From Candidatus Rokuibacteriota bacterium (GTDB lineage: Bacteria > Methylomirabilota > Methylomirabilia > Rokubacteriales > CSP1-6): 34,566 bases of DNA. The position numbers were made by a program, and so were the translations under genes. Numbering within the stretch: position 1 is the stretch's first letter; every line of letters starts with the position of its first letter. Location of the stretch: NCBI GenBank assembly GCA_003220315.1, contig QHSA01000088.1:1-34566 (forward strand), given 5' to 3'. A model generated the notes under the pieces. The model saw nothing but the letters and a program-made list of their open reading frames with translations, had not been told where the DNA came from and searched no databases. Shown piece after piece: positions 500-24,350 of this stretch.

Positions 500-2101
500 T
501 CATGCGCCCGCATGCTCCAGCGCGGCCCGGATGAAGCCGGCGAAGAGTGGGTGCGGATCCCAGGGCCGTGAGCGGAACTCCGGGTGGAACTGCCCGGCCA
601 CGAAGTACGGGTGCTCGGGAATCTCGATGATCTCGACGAGCTGCTTCTCGGCCCAGATCCCCGAGATGCGGAGCCCATGCTTCTCGAGCCTGTGGACGTA
701 GTCGTTGTTGACCTCGTACCGGTGGCGGTGCCGCTCCTGAATGATCCCCTGCCCGTACAGGCGTGAGGCGAGGCTGCCCTCGCCGAGCACGATCGGATAG
801 AGGCCGAGGCGCATCGTCCCGCCCTTGTCGGCGATCGTGCGCTGCTCGGGCAGGAGGTCGATGAGGTTGTGGGCGGGGTGGGGCTCGAATTCCGTGGAGT
901 TGGCGCCGGCCAGGCCGCAGACGCTGCGCGCGTACTCGATCACCGCGCACTGCATCCCGAGACAGATCCCGAAGTACGGCACGCCCCGCTCGCGTGCGTA
1001 GCGGACCGCCTGGACCTTGCCCTCGATCCCCCGGTCGCCGAAGCCGCCGGGCACCAGGATGCCGTGGACGTCGGCGAAGGGCGCGTCGGCGCCCATCTTC
1101 TCGACGTGCTCGGCGTCCACCCATTGGATGTCCACGCGCGCCTCGTTGGCGATCCCGCCGTGGGCGAGCGCCTCGATCAGGCTCTTGTACGAGTCCTTCA
1201 GGTCGATGTACTTGCCGACGACGGCGACCCGCGTCGCAGCGCGGGGCGACTTCACGCGACGGACGACGGCCTCCCACCGCGAGAGGTCGCAGGGGCGCGG
1301 CTCGAGCCCGAGGAGCTTCGTGACGATCTCGTCGAGGCCCTCCTTGTGGAAGACCAGCGGGACCTCGTAGATGGTCTCCACGTCCTTGGCGGTGATGACC
1401 GCCTCCTCCTCGACGTCGCAGAAGAGGGCGATTTTCGACTTGATGCCCGGCGGCAAATAGCGGTCGGTGCGGCAGAGGAGGATGTCCGGCTGGATCCCGA
1501 TCGCGCGAAGCTCCTTCACGGAGTGCTGTGTCGCCTTGGTCTTGAGCTCCGACGCCGCCTGCATGAACGGCACGAGGGTCAGGTGCACGTAGAGGACGTT
1601 CTCGCGGCCGACGTCCTTCTTGAACTGGCGGATCGCCTCGAGAAACGGGAGCCCCTCGATGTCGCCCACGGTCCCGCCGACCTCGACGATGACGACGTCC
1701 GTGTCGCGCGCGACGCGACGGATCGACGCCTTGATCTCGTCGGTGATGTGCGGGATCACCTGGACGGTCCGGCCGAGGTAATCACCGCGCCGCTCCTTTT
1801 GGATGACGGAGAAGTAGACCTTCCCCGTCGTCACGTTGTGGTCACGCGTCACACGGCCCGAGGTGAACCGCTCGTAGTGCCCGAGGTCGAGGTCGGTCTC
1901 ACCGCCGTCGTCGGTGACGAACACCTCGCCGTGCTGATACGGGCTCATCGTCCCCGCGTCGACGTTAATGTAAGGGTCCATCTTCTGTAGCGTGACGCGG
2001 AGGCCCCGCGCCTCGAGGAGTGACCCGATCGAGGCGGCCGCGAGGCCCTTGCCCAACGACGACACGACGCCGCCCGTCACGAAGATGTATTTCGGGGCCA
2101 C
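500..2101 (-). CDS. pyrG: CTP synthase
   Basis: Makes CTP from UTP, ATP and glutamine; last step of pyrimidine nucleotide synthesis, cytosolic. The 533-residue length is typical. The N-terminal amidoligase domain starts with [16 protein letters not shown] (P-loop-like nucleotide site, residues 4-19). The C-terminal class I glutamine amidotransferase domain carries the nucleophile C380 in FGICLGMQ, with H506 and E508 in GQFHPEF completing the triad, so both half reactions look intact. The start is GTG at 2101, preceded by GGGAGG; the upstream stop codon is one base away, so translation is likely coupled to the CBS/nucleotidyltransferase gene. Together with kdsA it supplies two needs of CMP-KDO synthesis: CTP and the sugar. 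Confidence 0.98.
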
Positions 2102-2102
2102 C

Positions 2103-3752
2103 TCAGCCTCCCTTCGTCAGCAGTCGCCGGACCTGTTCGATCTCCGTCGCACGGTCCGTGATGCGACCGTCCAACCGCCCGTCCCGCAGCTCGGTGAGGA
2201 CACGCGCGACTGCCGGCCCGCGCGGGACGCCGAGCGCGATGACCTCGTCCCCGGACAGGGAGACGGGCGCGCGGTCGAGCCCGAGGTACCAATCGAGCGC
2301 GGCGCGCGCGTTGCCGTCGCCCACGAGCCAGAGCCAGGCCAGCGCCACGGGAGCGAGCTCGCGGAGCAGGCGCGCACGGGTGCTCGGCGCGCTCGCCGCG
2401 GAGAGCCGCGCCAGGCGCGCCCGCCCCTCGCCGAGGGCGTGTCGGAGGCGCGCGAGGGGCTCGCCCGCGAACGCCAGCCGCTCGAGTGCGGCGCTCGCAA
2501 CCGCCGACGGCTGGTCGGCCGTGAGCGCGAGCGCGCCGAGCTCGACCGGCTCGGCGCCGAGGCCGCGCTGCCGCGCCCACGCGAGCGTCCCGGGCAGCTC
2601 GGTGACGAGGCGCCCGGTCGCCGCGGTGAACCGGTAGCGGGGATCCAGGAGACGGAAGGCGCCGCCCCTCCCGAGCCGCGCCAGCGTCTCCGCGGCGTGC
2701 GGCTCGACGAGGATCCGCTCGAGTTCGGCGACGATCCGTTGTCCCGAGAGCGCCGCGTACGGCGCGAGGCGGAGCGCGAGCGTCTGCGCCCGGGCGGTCG
2801 CCGCATCCGGGGCGAGGCCGAAGCGCGTCGCGTAGCGCGCGGCCCTGAACAGGCGCGTCGGATCCTCCACGTACGACAGCGGGTGGAGCACGCGTAGACG
2901 CTGGCGCGCGAGGTCGGCCCGCCCGCCGAGCGGATCGAACAGGCCGAAGGCGCCGGAGTGGAGCTCGACGGCCATCGCGTTGATGGTGAAGTCGCGGCGC
3001 CGCAGGTCCGCGTCGATTCCCGCCGGCATCACCCGCGGTAGCGCCCCCCTCGATTCGTAGCGCTCGCTCCGTGCCGTCGCCACGTCGATCCGTCCGACGC
3101 GCGGCGCCTGGACGGACGCCGTGAGGAAGCGACGATGCTCGCGGACGACGCCGCCGAGCGCGCGCGCGAGGTCGCGCGCCACGGCCGGACCATCGCCCTC
3201 GACGACGATGTCGAGATCGGTGGATGCCACTTCCGCGTCGCGCCAGAGGTCGCGGACCATCCCGCCGACCAGGAACGCGTGCGCCCCCTGCGCCGCCGCG
3301 CACCGCCCGATCGACGCGAGCAGCACCTGCGTGTCGGCGGGGAGTCGTCGCGCCACGCGGGGCGCCGTGGGGACGGCGGGCGGCGAGGCCGTCCCGGGTG
3401 CGACCGCGCCCACCGGGGGGCCCCGGCGGTCGCGCACGACCACAAGCGGCGCGCCCTGCGCGAGGAGCCGGCGCACCGTCACCTCGCTCGCCGTGGGCTC
3501 CACGCGGGGAAGGTCGCGGGCGATGACGGTGGACGCCAGGTCGTCGAGGCCGAGGCGACTCGCTCGGACGAGGTCCTCGCGCAGGACGTACCGCCCGTCC
3601 GCGACGACGATCACCGCGTCGCGCTTCCTCGCCAACCGCAAGGCGGCGCCGATGGCGAGTGGCGCGCGCGTCCACGCGACCGCGGCGTTGACGAGGTCGG
3701 TCGCCACGAGGCTCACCTGGGGATACACGTGGGCGCGCTTCGCCACCCTCAT
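2103..3752 (-). CDS. CCA-adding / poly(A) polymerase family nucleotidyltransferase with N-terminal CBS-like region
   Basis: A class II tRNA nucleotidyltransferase-type enzyme, expected to add CCA (or A residues) to RNA 3' ends. Residues about 15-120 look like a pair of CBS-type regulatory motifs ([14 protein letters not shown], then [19 protein letters not shown]). The catalytic head follows: [13 protein letters not shown] (160-172), the metal-binding [12 protein letters not shown] with D179 and D181, [12 protein letters not shown] (251-262), DPLGGRADL, and the neck motif [17 protein letters not shown] (296-312). The family version common in deltaproteobacteria and cyanobacteria has a DHH phosphoesterase domain before the CBS pair; here that domain is absent and the protein starts directly in the CBS region. 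Starts with ATG overlapping the recombinase stop (ATGA). Whether it adds CCA or only A cannot be read from the sequence. Confidence 0.88.
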
Positions 3753-4633
3753 GCCCTGGGGTGGAAGCGCCGGTACATCCGCGCAAGCGCGGAGGTCGGT
3801 AGATGGGTGTAGATCTGGGTCGTTGCGATGTCGGCGTGGCCGAGCATGGCCTGCACGGAGCGCAGGTCGGCGCCGCCCTCGAGGAGATGGCTCGCGAAGG
3901 AGTGACGGAGCATGTGCGGCGACACCTGGGCCCGGAGTCCGGCGCGCGTCGCGGCGCGGCGGACGACGATCCAGAGCGACTGGCGCGAGAGCCGCCCCCC
4001 GCGAGGGTTCACGAAGAGGCGGCCGCTATCGCGCCGACGCGTGTGGAGCGGCCGGACCTCCCTGAGGTAGCGTGTGACCCAAGCGGAGGCCTCGGCGCCG
4101 ACCGGCACGAGCCGTTGTTTCTTGCCCTTGCCCGTGCAGACCACGTACCCGGATTGTAGATTGAGATCCTCTCCCCTGAGGTCGAGGCACTCCGAAGCGC
4201 GCATCCCTGTCGCGTAGAGGAGCTCGAGGATCGCGCGGTCGCGCACGCCGCGGGGCTCGGCAATGTCCGGCGCCTCGACGAGCGCCGTCACCGTCTCCCG
4301 CGACAGCGTCCGGGGCAGCGAGCGCCCGCGCCGCGGGGCCTCGAGGTGCTCCGTGGGGTCGCGCTCGAGCGCCCCCTCACGAAGCAAGTGACGGTAGAGT
4401 CCACGCACCGCGGACATCCGGCGCGCGACGCTCGAGGGCCGGAGGCCGCGCCTCCGGAGCCCTGCCAGATACGCGACGAGATCGTCGGGCGCGAGACTTG
4501 CGAGGGTGCGGCGGTGGCGGCGGAGGAACTCCGTGAAGTCGGTGAGGTCGCTGCGGTAGGCGGCGAGGGTATTTCGAGACGCCCCCTGCTCCGCTTGCAG
4601 GGCGCCGAGATACCCAACGACGACCTCGGTCAT
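3749..4633 (-). CDS. xerD: XerC/XerD-type tyrosine recombinase
   Basis: A site-specific recombinase, probably resolving chromosome dimers at a dif site. The 294-residue length is typical of XerC/D. The N-terminal SAM-like DNA-binding domain spans residues 1-95 ([14 protein letters not shown]). The catalytic set is complete: R145 in ATGMRASE, K169 in TGKGKKQR, H240 and R243 in HMLRHSFA, H266 in LGHADI and the nucleophile Y275 in TQIYTH. XerD rather than XerC is my best guess from overall pattern; the two are hard to separate by eye. It heads a tightly coupled run with the nucleotidyltransferase gene (ATGA overlap), so it looks like a housekeeping recombinase, not a mobile-element integrase; no attachment site or element border is visible. 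The 93-base gap to murJ holds only a weak TAAGAT (4650-4655, minus). Confidence 0.93.
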
Positions 4634-4726
4634 AGGGTGACCACGTCGAATCTTATCACGGCGCCCACGAATCGCGAAACCGCCGGGCGGACGGGTAGTG
4701 TGTGTTGAGCCACTCCCCGCGGGTGC

Positions 4727-6331
4727 TCACGCGCCGGGCCTGCTCCGGGGCTCGGCGCGCGGCAGCATCCGGAGGAGCGCGGTGCGCTCCGGAAGATCGA
4801 GGACCACGCTGGCCGACCAGAAGAGGCCGACGGCTCCCGCGATCGTTCCCCCGAGCCACAGGACGTCCACCAGGAGTGACCGCGACCCGGGCCACACGAG
4901 GACGGCGAGCCCGCACCACACGAGGAGGGGAAGCGACGCCGCGAGCGTCCGGGCCACGCTCGCGACCAGTGCGCGCCCGCCGAGGGGCCCGAGCCGTCGT
5001 CGGGCTGCCCAGAGGAGCGCCACGAGGTTGACGTAGGCGCCGACGGACGATGCGCCGGCGAGGCCCGCGTGACCGAGCGGCGCCATCATGACGAGCGCGG
5101 CGAGCACGTTGGCGCCGACGGCGACGATGCCGAGGCGAACCGCGGTGCCCGCCTCGCCGAGCGCGTAGAACACCTGCGCGGTGATGCGCGAACCCGCGAA
5201 GCCGGCGAGACCGATCGCGTACCACGCGAGCGCGTCGGCGGTGGCGGCCGTCTCGGCGGGCCCGAACTTCCCCCGCTCGAAGAGCACGCGGACGATCGGT
5301 GCGCGCAGGACCACGAGGCCGGCCATGGCCGGCAGCGCAATGTACGCGGCGAGGCGGAGCGAGAAGTTCAGGGTGTCGGCCACGGCCCGCGTCTCGCGCG
5401 CCGCCGCCTGCCGGGCCATCACGGGCAACGAGGCCGACGCGAGCGCGATCCCGAAGACGCCGAGGGGGAACTCCATGACCCGATCGGCGTAGTAGAGGTA
5501 CGAGATCGACCCCGGCCGAAGCAGCGAGGCGAGGAGCGTGTTCACGAAGACCATCACCTGCACCGCGGCGAGCCCGAACACCGCGGGCAGGAGCAAACGG
5601 AGCAGTCGCGCGAGGGCCGGGTGGCGGAACTGAGATCCGGGCAGGACCAGGAGCCCGGACCGGCGAAGGCTCGGCAGCTGGACCAGGAGCTGGCCGATGC
5701 CGCCCAGCAGGACCCCGATCGCGAGCGAGAGGATCGGTGGATCCACCCGCGACGCGAGCAGCGAGATGGCGAGGATCATCCCCACGTTCTGGACGGCGGG
5801 GCCGAGCGCGCTGGCGAAGAACCGCCCCTGTGCGTTCAGTGCGCCGGCGGCGAGCGCTGCGAGCCCGACCAAGACGACATACGGGAACATCACGCGCGTG
5901 AGGAGCACCGCGAGCCCCCCCCGCGCGGGGTCCTCCGCGATGCCTGGCGCGATCGCCGTCACGAGCCACGGCGCCGTCGCGATGCCGAGCAGCGCCGTCA
6001 CGCCGAGGGCGACGAGCGCCAGCGCCAAGACCGCGCGGAGCATCCGGAGGACCTCGGGTCGCGACTGCGTCACGAAGTATTCCGAGAAGACGGGGATCAT
6101 CGCCGTGGACAAGGCCCCCTCGGCGAGGAGGCGTCGCAGGATGTTCGGGATTCGGAACGCGACGAAGAACGCGTCGGTCACCGGCCCGGCGCCGAACACG
6201 AGCGCGACGACGATGTCACGGACGAAGCCGACCACGCGGCTCACGAGCGTCGCGCTTCCGATGGACCCGAGCGCCCGGACCACCTGCCGTTCCGTCGAGC
6301 TCACCTTGAATTCGTCCCATCGTTCGGGCAT
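4727..6331 (-). CDS. murJ: lipid II flippase MurJ (MviN family)
   Basis: Moves the peptidoglycan precursor lipid II across the inner membrane. At 534 residues it has the usual length, with about 14 hydrophobic segments along the protein and the family's N-terminal blocks SATLVSRVVGFVRD, DAFFVAFRIPNILRRLLAEGALSTAMIPVF and later YYADRVMEFPLGVFGIAL. These place it firmly in the MOP-superfamily MurJ group. The track start is ATG at 6331; a GTG at 6304 (after TTCAAG) is an alternative, and the shorter form would clear the likely rpsT promoter that overlaps the first codons. Divergent from rpsT; xerD follows 93 bases downstream on the same strand. Confidence 0.95.
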   Translation of the reverse strand: MPERWDEFKVSSTERQVVRALGSIGSATLVSRVVGFVRDIVVALVFGAGPVTDAFFVAFRIPNILRRLLAEGALSTAMIPVFSEYFVTQSRPEVLRMLRAVLALALVALGVTALLGIATAPWLVTAIAPGIAEDPARGGLAVLLTRVMFPYVVLVGLAALAAGALNAQGRFFASALGPAVQNVGMILAISLLASRVDPPILSLAIGVLLGGIGQLLVQLPSLRRSGLLVLPGSQFRHPALARLLRLLLPAVFGLAAVQVMVFVNTLLASLLRPGSISYLYYADRVMEFPLGVFGIALASASLPVMARQAAARETRAVADTLNFSLRLAAYIALPAMAGLVVLRAPIVRVLFERGKFGPAETAATADALAWYAIGLAGFAGSRITAQVFYALGEAGTAVRLGIVAVGANVLAALVMMAPLGHAGLAGASSVGAYVNLVALLWAARRRLGPLGGRALVASVARTLAASLPLLVWCGLAVLVWPGSRSLLVDVLWLGGTIAGAVGLFWSASVVLDLPERTALLRMLPRAEPRSRPGA

Positions 6332-21223: not shown

Positions 21224-23263
21224 TCAACACTCGTTGAAGCCGCACGAGAGGCACTTCTTGCACCCTTCCTCGTAGATGAAGGTCGCCTGGCCACACTCCT
21301 TGCACAGATCGCCGATCTGCTTGCGGCCGTCCCCGCGAGCCACGGGCGGCTCCGCCAGCGGCTTCACCTGGCCGATGTGCTCGGCCAGCGTGCGGGCAAG
21401 CGCGTCCGGGAGCGACAGGATCTTGGCCGGCCCGAAGCCTGTCGGCTGGCCGCCGCCGATCCGGGAGAGCTGGCTGATCACCTCTTCGAGGCGTCGCTGA
21501 GCCGTGAAGGGTGAAGGGAGCCTCAACACGAGCGAAATCAGTCGTCCGAGCGCCTCGGCAACCGCCATCGTGTCCGAGCCACCTTTGCCGACCTGAACGA
21601 AGACCTCGAACGGTTCCTTCTGCGCTGTTTCGGTCACGGTGATCCATGCCGTCCCGATGGGCGTATCCGTGCGGTACGTGGTCCCGTTGAGACTCCGCGG
21701 ACGCGGCCGGATGACCGCGGGTGCCGCGCTCGGGACGTTCTCCTTCGTGCCGATACCGACGTTGAGGACCTGCTCGCCCTTGCAGCCGTCGCGGAAGACC
21801 GTGATGCCGAGGCAGCCGAGCTCCCACGCGAGCAGGTATGCGCGGGCGACGTCCTCCTCGCTCGCGCTGTTCGGGAGGTTGATCGTCTTCGACACGCCGT
21901 TGTCGGTGTAGCGCTGGAACGCGGCCTGATGACGCACGTGCCACTCGTGGTTGATCTCGTGCGAGGTCTTGAAGATCCGGGCCGCGTCCTCGGGCACCCC
22001 CGGAATGCCATCGAGCGAGCCGCGCTTGGCGATCTCCCGCATGAGCGCGTCCGAGTAGAAGCCCCGCTCCTTGGCGATCCGCTCGAACGTCTCGTTGACG
22101 AAGGTCAGCACCCGCTCACCGTCGGGCTGCCTCACGCGATGCTCGAAGGCGAGCGCGAAGATCGGCTCGATGCCCGACGAGCAGCCTGCGATCATCGAGA
22201 TCGTGCCCGTCGGGGCGATCGTCGTGACCGTCGAGTTCCGGAGCGGGCGGTCGTTTGCGTAGATCGACAGGCTCCAGTTCGGGAACGGCCCGCGCTCCTC
22301 CGCGAGCTTCGCCGACTGATCGTGCGACTTCTCCTTCACGAAGGCCATCAACCGGTCGGCGAGATCGATCGCCCCCGGGCTGTCGTAGGGGATGCCCATG
22401 GTGAAGAGCAGGTCCGCCCAGCCCATGAGGCCGAGGCCGATTCGGCGGTTCGACTTCACCGTGGCGTCGATCTCCGGCAGCGGGTACGGGTTCATCTCGA
22501 TCACGTCGTCGAGGAAGCGCACCGCCAGCCGCACCACACGCTCCATCTCGTCCCAGTCGATCGACCAGTCCCCGTCCTCACCGCGGCGGGCGAACTTCGA
22601 GACGTTGAGCGAGCCCAAATTACAGGCCTCGTTCGGTAAAAGGGGTTGTTCGCCGCAGTTATGGGCTATAAAACCATTACTGACGAAGCTATGAGTGAGT
22701 GGTTCCTTGAGGTCGAAAACGCCTTCTTCTCCCTTGGGCTCGAGCGACTTGAAACGCGCGAGGAACGTCTCCCTATATGGCTTGCGAGAGTACGTCGAGA
22801 CGAGCTGGAGTAGCCTGTTCTGCTTGGCCGTGCTGAGGAACCCAATTTCCCGCACGAATGCGACGAGGTTCTCCCTGGCTACGGTCAGGTCGTGATCGGG
22901 CTGGCACTCATACTCCGCCATGCCACCATGACCGTCGGGAAGCTGGGCTCGCCGTGCCGCATGGCGGTCCTGGTAGATCCGTGACGCGATTCCGAAGTTC
23001 AGAAGCATCCGCTGTACATCCACGAGAAGCGGATACGAAATCGAGGTAAGCCGAACGGATACTCCCTTCTGCGTGGTCCCGCTGACATGCCCGTCGGCGG
23101 TGAACAGGGCCTGCAAAACCCCTCGCTGCAGGTCCTCAGAGCCGCACAGGACTCGCTCGGGAATGCGTGCGGTCTTTGCGTCCTGAGTCAGTCCGTATTT
23201 CTCAGTCACCGCTCTGGCGATTGAGAACGTGCAGGAGGTCGCCGGGCCGGAGCTCATCGGCAC
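21224..23263 (-). CDS. nrdJ: class II ribonucleotide reductase, C-terminal part preceded by C-terminal intein fragment
   Basis: Second half of adenosylcobalamin-dependent ribonucleotide reductase, in a different frame from the first half. From GTG 23263 (AAAGGG seven bases upstream) or GTG 23209 it reads a homing-endonuclease remnant and intein blocks F/G, then the extein [18 protein letters not shown] at 22657: the catalytic thiyl-radical Cys and Glu of CGE and the redox Cys of EACNLGS. Barrel motifs follow ([27 protein letters not shown]), then a TSCPD domain and a C-terminal zinc-ribbon-like tail (CKECG...[12 protein letters not shown]) that can carry the shuttle cysteines. The extein part is 477 residues; joined to the N-terminal 282 it makes 759, a normal length. 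No stop interrupts this half. The track lists 679 residues from GTG 23263. Confidence 0.9.
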
Positions 23264-23504
23264 GTCGCCACCCTTTCACGGTCATCAAGCGATGATCCGC
23301 CGTGAGTCGAATCTCGTAACCTTCCTCAGTGCGGAGGCAACACACCCGCTTCACTCCGGTCTCGAAGACGGAAGAGGCGGGCCCGAACTCGCCGGCGTCA
23401 AACCGAGAATCTAGGATCACGTCGACAGCCTCGCCGGCCCGGGCGAGTGTGTCGGCACGGAGGAGTCCGCGCGTGGTGTAGATCAGCGCATCACCCGTGA
23501 TGCA
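22658..23504 (-). mobile_element. intein in the nrdJ catalytic site, split over two reading frames, half of its endonuclease lost
   Basis: The intein begins at C1 in [15 protein letters not shown] (block A) and has block B ([17 protein letters not shown], the T-x-x-H motif). The N-fragment then stops at TGA (23202-23204) after exactly 100 intein residues. The other frame supplies a LAGLIDADG-type half ([16 protein letters not shown], block E), [20 protein letters not shown], then block F ([17 protein letters not shown]) and block G (FIAHN/C). All residues needed for splicing are present: C1, T-x-x-H, the block F Asp and His, the penultimate His, the terminal Asn and C+1. The first LAGLIDADG motif (block C) and its linker are missing. 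GC is lower than in the flanks: two counted 60-base lines gave about 52% and 57%, against about 67% in a neighbouring extein line. Confidence 0.88.
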
Positions 23505-24350
23505 GGGGTTGGTCGCCTCGACCATGCCGATCTCCGGCGTCGGGTTCGCGGGGCTCGCGTTGATCCGGTCGATGAAGATCATCCCGGGATCGCCCGTGCG
23601 CCAGGCGGCGCGCACGATCCGCTCGAAGACCTCCTTCGCCGACAGCCGGCCCGTCACCGCGCCCGTGTGCGGGTTCACCAGGTCGTACTCGGTGCCCGCG
23701 GCGAGCGCGTCCATGAACTTGTCGGTGGCGGCGACGGAGATGTTGAAGTTGGTGATTCCGCCGTCGAGCTTGCACTCGATGAACTCGAGGATGTCCGGGT
23801 GGTCGACCCGCAGGATGCCCATGTTCGCGCCGCGCCGGGTTCCCCCCTGCTTGACCGCCTCCGTCGCGCTGTTGAAGACCCGGAGGAACGAGATGGGCCC
23901 GGAGGCGCGACCGCCGGTGGACGCCACGATGTCGTCCTTCGGGCGCAGGCGCGAGAAGGCGAAGCCGGTGCCGCCACCGGATTTATGGATGATCGCCGCG
24001 GCCTTCACCGAGTCGAAGATCTCTTCCATCGAGTCCCCGACCGGCAGGACGTAGCAGGCCGAGTACTGCAGGCCGTTGCCCTTCCCGGCGTTCATCAGGG
24101 TCGGCGAGTTCGGCAGGAAGTCGCCGTCGACCATCACCTCGTAGAAGGCGGCGGCGATCTCACGGACCGCCGCCCGGCTGCGTCCGTATCGGGCCTCGCC
24201 CGCGGCAATGGACAGGGCGACCCGCCAGCACATCTCCTCCGGCGTCTCGGCCACCTCGCCGCCTTCGCGCGCGAGGTAGCGCTCCCGGAGCACTCGCAGG
24301 GCGGGTTCGGTCCATTTGCCAACCTTTGCGGGGCGGGTTTCAGCCAGCAT
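23202..24350 (-). CDS. nrdJ: class II ribonucleotide reductase, N-terminal part ending in N-terminal intein fragment
   Basis: First half of the B12-dependent enzyme that reduces ribonucleotides to deoxyribonucleotides. I start it at ATG 24350, which has GGGAGGA seven bases upstream; the track start 30 bases earlier has none. It gives 382 residues: 282 of extein and 100 of intein. Extein motifs: [31 protein letters not shown] (first redox Cys), [61 protein letters not shown] and EATNP directly before the intein. The ORF ends at TGA within GTGACTGA, where the second ORF is already open. Without splicing to the second half the enzyme lacks its radical cysteine. Confidence 0.92.

What the first reader, a model, noticed from the sequence alone, without database searches (positions are those of the whole stretch)
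22658..23504. Ribonucleotide reductase with a two-frame, possibly naturally split trans-splicing intein
Seen: the nrdJ intein is divided between two overlapping ORFs. ORF 1 ends after 100 intein residues at TGA in GTGACTGA. ORF 2 is in the +1 frame and open from upstream GTG codons (23263 with AAAGGG upstream, or 23209 inside the junction). All splicing residues are kept, and both extein halves are free of stops. Known: natural split inteins are broken where the endonuclease sits in contiguous inteins, and this is such a point. Inference: loss of the first half of the endonuclease left two coupled genes whose products may splice in trans to restore a 759-residue enzyme. A simple one-base error does not explain the missing LAGLIDADG motif.
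Basis: partly seen in the sequence, partly recalled or inferred. Interest (0 to 1): 0.85.

Follow-up and report, generated by a model that had tools for sequence, protein, structure and literature searches.

The report
Reductase intein split by recent deletion
In an uncultured bacterium, the only gene found for the essential enzyme ribonucleotide reductase is cut in two by a 251-base deletion inside its intein (a self-removing protein insert); if the sequence is right and the two half-proteins rejoin themselves, it is a split intein caught at birth, but an assembly error or a broken gene copy is not excluded.

Summary
The minus-strand nrdJ (class II ribonucleotide reductase) carries an intein at exactly 22658-23504, spread over two frames: ORF1 (24350-23202; 282 extein + 100 intein residues) and an overlapping ORF2 (to 21224). 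All splicing residues are kept.

The cause is now clear. A same-genus genome (QHSX01000072, Candidatus Rokuibacteriota) has the same intein in one 1144-codon frame. The window differs by a single 251-bp deletion (3x83+2) with 3-4 bp microhomology that removes the first LAGLIDADG motif; the rest of the gene aligns without a gap. The break falls in the only very-low-confidence stretch (98-110) of an AlphaFold2 model whose Hint fold is otherwise complete. The 98%-complete genome shows no other RNR. Exteins and endonuclease remnant show no decay, so the deletion is recent. No other genome searched has this split.

Trans-splicing from two coupled genes is the most economical way for such a cell to live, but it is inferred. 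Without reads, an assembly fault or doomed allele cannot be excluded. Verdict: real two-frame anatomy; at best an incipient split intein; function unproven.

The parts
23505..24350 (-). nrdJ N-extein, 282 residues, start ATG 24350 with SD GGGAGG
   Evidence: PF00317, PF02867, PRK08665; SD -11.4 kcal/mol; omega 0.02 vs G002
23202..23504 (-). N-intein of ORF1: 100 residues (C1 to D100) plus the TGA stop; blocks A and B
   Evidence: TIGR01445 over cut-off; matches DnaB mini-intein 4o1r up to its residue 103
23220..23221 (-). deletion junction: 251 bp present in same-genus G002 are missing here; 3-4 bp microhomology (TCG/TCGC)
   Evidence: alignment; for the breakpoints
23202..23209 (-). GTGACTGA: 8-nt overlap of a possible ORF2 start (GTG 23209, no SD) with the ORF1 stop (TGA)
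23255..23263 (-). alternative ORF2 starts upstream of the ORF1 stop: GTG 23263 and ATG 23257, behind AAAGGGTGG
   Evidence: duplex -6.3 and -6.9 kcal/mol
22739..23209 (-). remnant of the homing endonuclease (second LAGLIDADG motif [10 protein letters not shown]), open frame, omega 0.13 vs G002
   Evidence: (PF14528)
22658..22738 (-). C-intein splicing part (blocks F and G, ending HN)
   Evidence: (PF14890)
21224..22657 (-). nrdJ C-extein, 477 residues beginning [15 protein letters not shown], with stop
   Evidence: omega 0.065

Best explanation
A contiguous, endonuclease-bearing intein at the NP|CGEQ site of the single class II ribonucleotide reductase gene recently lost 251 bp (shown by comparison with a same-genus genome). 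The deletion took out the first half of the LAGLIDADG endonuclease and shifted the frame, so the gene is now two overlapping ORFs on one strand (shown in sequence). Most likely mechanism (inferred): ORF1 gives N-extein + complete N-intein. ORF2, started by translational coupling at GTG 23209 or at ATG 23257/GTG 23263, gives endonuclease remnant + C-intein + C-extein. The two halves of the Hint domain associate and splice in trans to the 759-residue NrdJ. This would be a split intein at or near its birth.
For: Sister genome with the same intein in one frame, differing by one 251-bp gap and otherwise gap-free over the gene. First LAGLIDADG lost; C1, T68, H71, D264, H281, N282 invariant in 23 aligned sequences and kept here, +1 Cys. 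ORF1 ends where the DnaB mini-intein 4o1r has its N/C boundary; AF2 (pLDDT 88, pTM 0.82) gives a complete Hint fold with pLDDT below 50 only at 98-110, the break; Foldseek matches gp41-1 (TM 0.85 by target) and the NrdJ-1 split intein (0.76). Only RNR found in a 98%-complete genome. Exteins and remnant under purifying selection, no excess change on the window branch. In the ~17.6 kb collinear with G002 no other conserved ORF is cut into two frames in this way. The two other inteins of this genome are intact. Contiguous inteins cut artificially at the endonuclease site often trans-splice (PMC7090010).
Against: Seen in one assembly only; no reads or conspecific genome available. ORF2 has no strong ribosome-binding site. 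The C-fragment carries about 157 residues of orphan half-endonuclease, which may harm solubility. Lack of decay also fits an artefact or a very young lethal allele. Same-genus G001 has an apparently chimeric nrdJ at another intein, so this gene can be mis-assembled in such data.
Confidence: 0.42

Rival explanations
1. Assembly or minority-variant artefact: the organism has the contiguous intein as in G002, and the 251-bp gap comes from chimeric reads, local mis-assembly or a rare deleted allele taken into the consensus.
For: The assembly has 301 contigs and looks like a metagenome bin (the nearest named relatives are MAGs). Sister loci are contiguous. The remnant shows no relaxed selection. 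A same-genus bin has an apparently strain-chimeric nrdJ at another intein.
Against: The break has only 3-4 bp of shared sequence, too short for k-mer overlap to create it without reads that span it (inference). No N in the window. Flanks are collinear and largely frame-clean against G002.
Confidence: 0.33
2. Real deletion, but the gene is dead: a recent pseudogene, with dNTPs supplied by an RNR missing from the bin, or an allele being lost from the population.
For: The bin is 98%, not 100%, complete; some members of the same family carry a second RNR locus (for example G005, G011, G021, G031).
Against: No other PF02867, and no NrdD or NrdB, in the genome. Same-genus G002 shows one RNR gene only. 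No further stops or frameshifts, extein omega 0.02-0.07.
Confidence: 0.17
3. Translational +1 frameshifting at GAC-TGA-G joins the frames, giving a contiguous 282-residue intein that splices in cis.
For: The +1 reading has no stop and folds well in the model.
Against: No slippery run, no SD-like stimulator at a prfB-type distance, and re-pairing of the Asp tRNA from GAC to ACT is poor (sequence; inference).
Confidence: 0.05

Closest known systems
Contiguous NrdJ intein of Candidatus Rokuibacteriota AR20 (QHSX01000072; G002, L005, L034)
   Same: Same gene, same insertion site, C-part 91% identical, same splicing motifs
   Different: One 1144-codon frame with a complete two-motif LAGLIDADG endonuclease; the window lacks 251 bp and is in two frames
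NrdJ-1 natural split intein (PDB 8UBS)
   Same: Ribonucleotide reductase host, Hint fold, break in the endonuclease-site loop
   Different: Distant sequence; there the parts are separate genes with a short C-intein of about 40 residues (own knowledge), here the ORFs overlap and the C-part keeps half an endonuclease
Cyanobacterial DnaE split inteins (Npu, Ssp)
   Same: Two fragments of an essential enzyme, same region of the Hint fold as break point
   Different: Distant loci and experimentally proven; here adjacent, overlapping and unproven
Gemmatimonadota nrdJ intein lacking the first LAGLIDADG motif (JARIEX010000030, L048)
   Same: Independent loss of the first LAGLIDADG motif in the same intein family
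   Different: Frame kept, so a contiguous 312-residue intein
nrdJ on two ORFs in Thermus phage phiYS40 and Synechococcus phage P60 (PMC3653736)
   Same: nrdJ encoded by two neighbouring or overlapping ORFs
   Different: Phage genes; an intein is not named for these two in the passages read

Membership tests
Intein (Hint splicing domain) | Nucleophile C1, block-B TxxH, block-F Asp, C-terminal HN and nucleophilic +1 residue | tested here: met
   C1, T68, H71, D264, H281, N282 invariant in 23 aligned sequences and present here; +1 is Cys
Intein (Hint splicing domain) | Hint fold | tested here: met
   AF2 pLDDT 88; the listed top Foldseek hits are inteins or intein endonucleases; model made on the +1-joined reading
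Two-motif LAGLIDADG homing endonuclease | Two LAGLIDADG motifs | tested here: not met
   First motif deleted, second kept
Natural split intein | N- and C-intein on separate reading frames, each fused to its extein | tested here: met
Natural split intein | Break at the canonical endonuclease/split site | tested here: met
Natural split intein | Split form inherited in more than one genome | tested here: not met
   Only G000 among 23 class genomes with a match to this intein and none of the named loci; L051 has only a 1-nt frameshift
Natural split intein | Both fragments expressed and splicing in trans | not testable with these tools
   Needs expression or proteomics
Class II ribonucleotide reductase NrdJ | NrdJ domains across the exteins | tested here: met
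   PF00317, PF02867, TSCPD; PRK08665 (NF006417) 10-288 in ORF1 and 279-758 in ORF2; full-length cut-offs cannot be reached by halves

The most novel reading that the evidence does not exclude
A freshly born natural split intein in the sole ribonucleotide reductase of a living bacterium: one out-of-frame deletion inside the endonuclease turned a contiguous intein into two coupled genes whose products trans-splice, with the unbroken form still present in a sister species.
Probability: 0.38. Interest if true: 0.75.

Novelty: new variant of a known kind. Interest (0 to 1): 0.5.

Why it matters
How contiguous inteins become split inteins is treated as speculation in reviews (genomic rearrangement splitting a contiguous intein; PMC5874633). 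Here a single small deletion would do it, with the unbroken sister form at hand for comparison, in an enzyme the cell cannot do without. If the halves trans-splice on arrival, the step from contiguous to split needs no intermediate, and the pair G000/G002 would be a direct experimental system for that step. If they do not, the case shows how intein decay or metagenome assembly can imitate split inteins, which matters for mining split inteins from metagenomes.

Tried and rejected
One-base sequencing error: rejected, since 251 bp are missing relative to G002. Separate horizontal origin of the two parts: rejected, since the remnant, N-extein and C-extein have similar dS to G002 (0.34, 0.39, 0.32). 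A second RNR in the genome: none found for PF02867, PF13597 or PF00268. An inherited split form in relatives: none in the class search or in the named loci; L051 has a 1-nt frameshift in the N-intein, another kind of lesion; G025 and G071 end at contig edges within the intein. The exact junction in viral contigs: no match. Viral relatives of the intein that could be checked were in open frames, with no split RNR partner established. Papers on inteins in Rokubacteria: none held; the Dassa 2009 'fractured genes' paper is not held. A first reading of the G001 repeat with an exact pattern found nothing and was redone.

Full report
Anatomy. The gene lies on the minus strand. ORF1 starts at ATG 24350 behind GGGAGG and encodes 282 residues of NrdJ (all-alpha domain and first part of the barrel), then 100 intein residues, and stops at TGA 23204-23202. 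ORF2, in the +1 frame, is open from about 66 nt upstream of GTG 23209 and encodes an endonuclease remnant with the second LAGLIDADG motif, the C-intein and 477 residues of NrdJ to 21224. Together the exteins are 759 residues.

Cause of the split. The same-genus genome G002 (QHSX01000072, Candidatus Rokuibacteriota bacterium AR20) has the same intein at the same site in one 1144-codon frame. A global DNA alignment of the gene gives 2877 identical of 3198 aligned bases and a single internal gap: 251 bp absent from the window. Since 251 = 3x83+2, the frame shifts. The breakpoints share TCG in G002 (AATCG/TTCGCC), or TCGC if the left side read as in G004 (AATCGCAAGG), the usual mark of a microhomology deletion. 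The missing segment holds KGGFG...LLGWLIGDGHI...VSSVR, that is, the first half of the endonuclease.

Is the splicing machinery complete? In an alignment of 23 inteins C1, T68, H71, D264, H281 and N282 are invariant and present here, with Cys at +1. ORF1 covers the N-intein up to the point where the DnaB mini-intein 4o1r (142 residues) has its N/C boundary. For a model, the intein was read with one +1 step (GACT=D): pLDDT 88, pTM 0.82, Hint strands complete, pLDDT below 50 only for residues 98-110, which is the junction. Foldseek returns inteins, including the split inteins gp41-1 and NrdJ-1. The break thus lies in a loop where a chain cut should be tolerated. This model says nothing about expression or association in trans.

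Must the gene work? No other PF02867 gene, NrdD or NrdB was found in the genome, 98% complete with 1.8% contamination. Same-genus G002 shows one RNR gene, although some other genera of the family have a second type. dN/dS against G002 is 0.02 for the N-extein, 0.065 for the C-extein, 0.12 for the N-intein and 0.13 for the endonuclease remnant, and amino-acid changes polarised with G004 are no more frequent on the window branch. So decay has not begun: the deletion is young compared with the species split (dS about 0.35), or not real.

How widespread? Of 95 genomes of the class searched, 23 match this intein and only the window's genome splits it. Named relatives from other phyla are contiguous where the contig is complete, except for a 1-nt frameshift in L051. 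L048 (Gemmatimonadota) lost the same motif independently but kept the frame, so loss of this half of the endonuclease is tolerated.

Artefact or real? For real: the join needs reads that span it, because the shared sequence is only 3-4 bp (inference); no N; about 17.6 kb collinear with G002, in which no other conserved ORF is cut into two frames like this; the two other inteins of this genome, in a UvrD/Rep-type helicase and in GTP cyclohydrolase I, are intact. For artefact: single assembly; and G001, same genus, has an nrdJ in which a 5' extein stretch of about 120 bp appears on both sides of a C-terminally truncated second intein, the two copies differing at synonymous sites, which looks like a join of two strains. 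I put a real deletion at about 0.65.

Expression of ORF2. GTG 23209 overlaps the ORF1 stop by 8 nt (GTGACTGA), a geometry compatible with termination-reinitiation, but has no SD. ATG 23257 and GTG 23263 have a weak AAAGGGTGG upstream. All are relics of ordinary intein codons, not new signals: G002 has GTG where the window has ATG 23257, and keeps GTGACTGAG at the junction.

Conclusion. The two-frame intein and its origin by deletion are shown for the sequence as given. Trans-splicing is the most economical explanation for a viable cell, given precedent for splits at this site (PMC7090010), but rests on inference. It is not a member of an established inherited split-intein family; it may work like one.

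Noticed in passing
L027-L033 and L097 (G001, G003, G015, G019, G023, G029, G033, G044), NrdJ site NP|CGEQ: In other Rokubacteria, including two same-genus genomes, the same site holds a 136-residue mini-intein-like Hint element starting CVTGDT with block-B TxxHQ, but ending TWITEGYVSRG|CGEQ: Gly in place of the terminal His-Asn, conserved across genera and in open frame with the exteins. How or whether it splices is unclear.
   Followed up: partly
L097 (G001:C90, locus positions about 1393-5314): nrdJ carries a second intein after IIHK that breaks off at block F and is followed by a repeat of the preceding extein stretch, the two copies differing at synonymous sites, then a frame change: probably a chimeric join of intein-plus and intein-minus strains.
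   Followed up: partly
L048 (JARIEX010000030, intein 4572-5507): Gemmatimonadota nrdJ intein of 312 residues with the first LAGLIDADG replaced by unrelated sequence but the frame kept: an independent inactivation of the same endonuclease.
   Followed up: partly
L051 (JAJPKB010000109), about 573-609: Chloroflexi nrdJ with a 1-nt frameshift inside the N-intein; likely sequencing error or pseudogene.
   Followed up: partly
L026 (G046:C177): Mini-intein of about 173 residues at the same site ending His-Gln before Cys+1, a Gln-terminated intein.
   Followed up: no
L069 and L071 (G000:C154, G000:C81): Two further inteins in the window's genome, in a UvrD/Rep-type helicase (ending VVHN|S) and in GTP cyclohydrolase I (ending LSHN|C), both in one frame.
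   Followed up: partly
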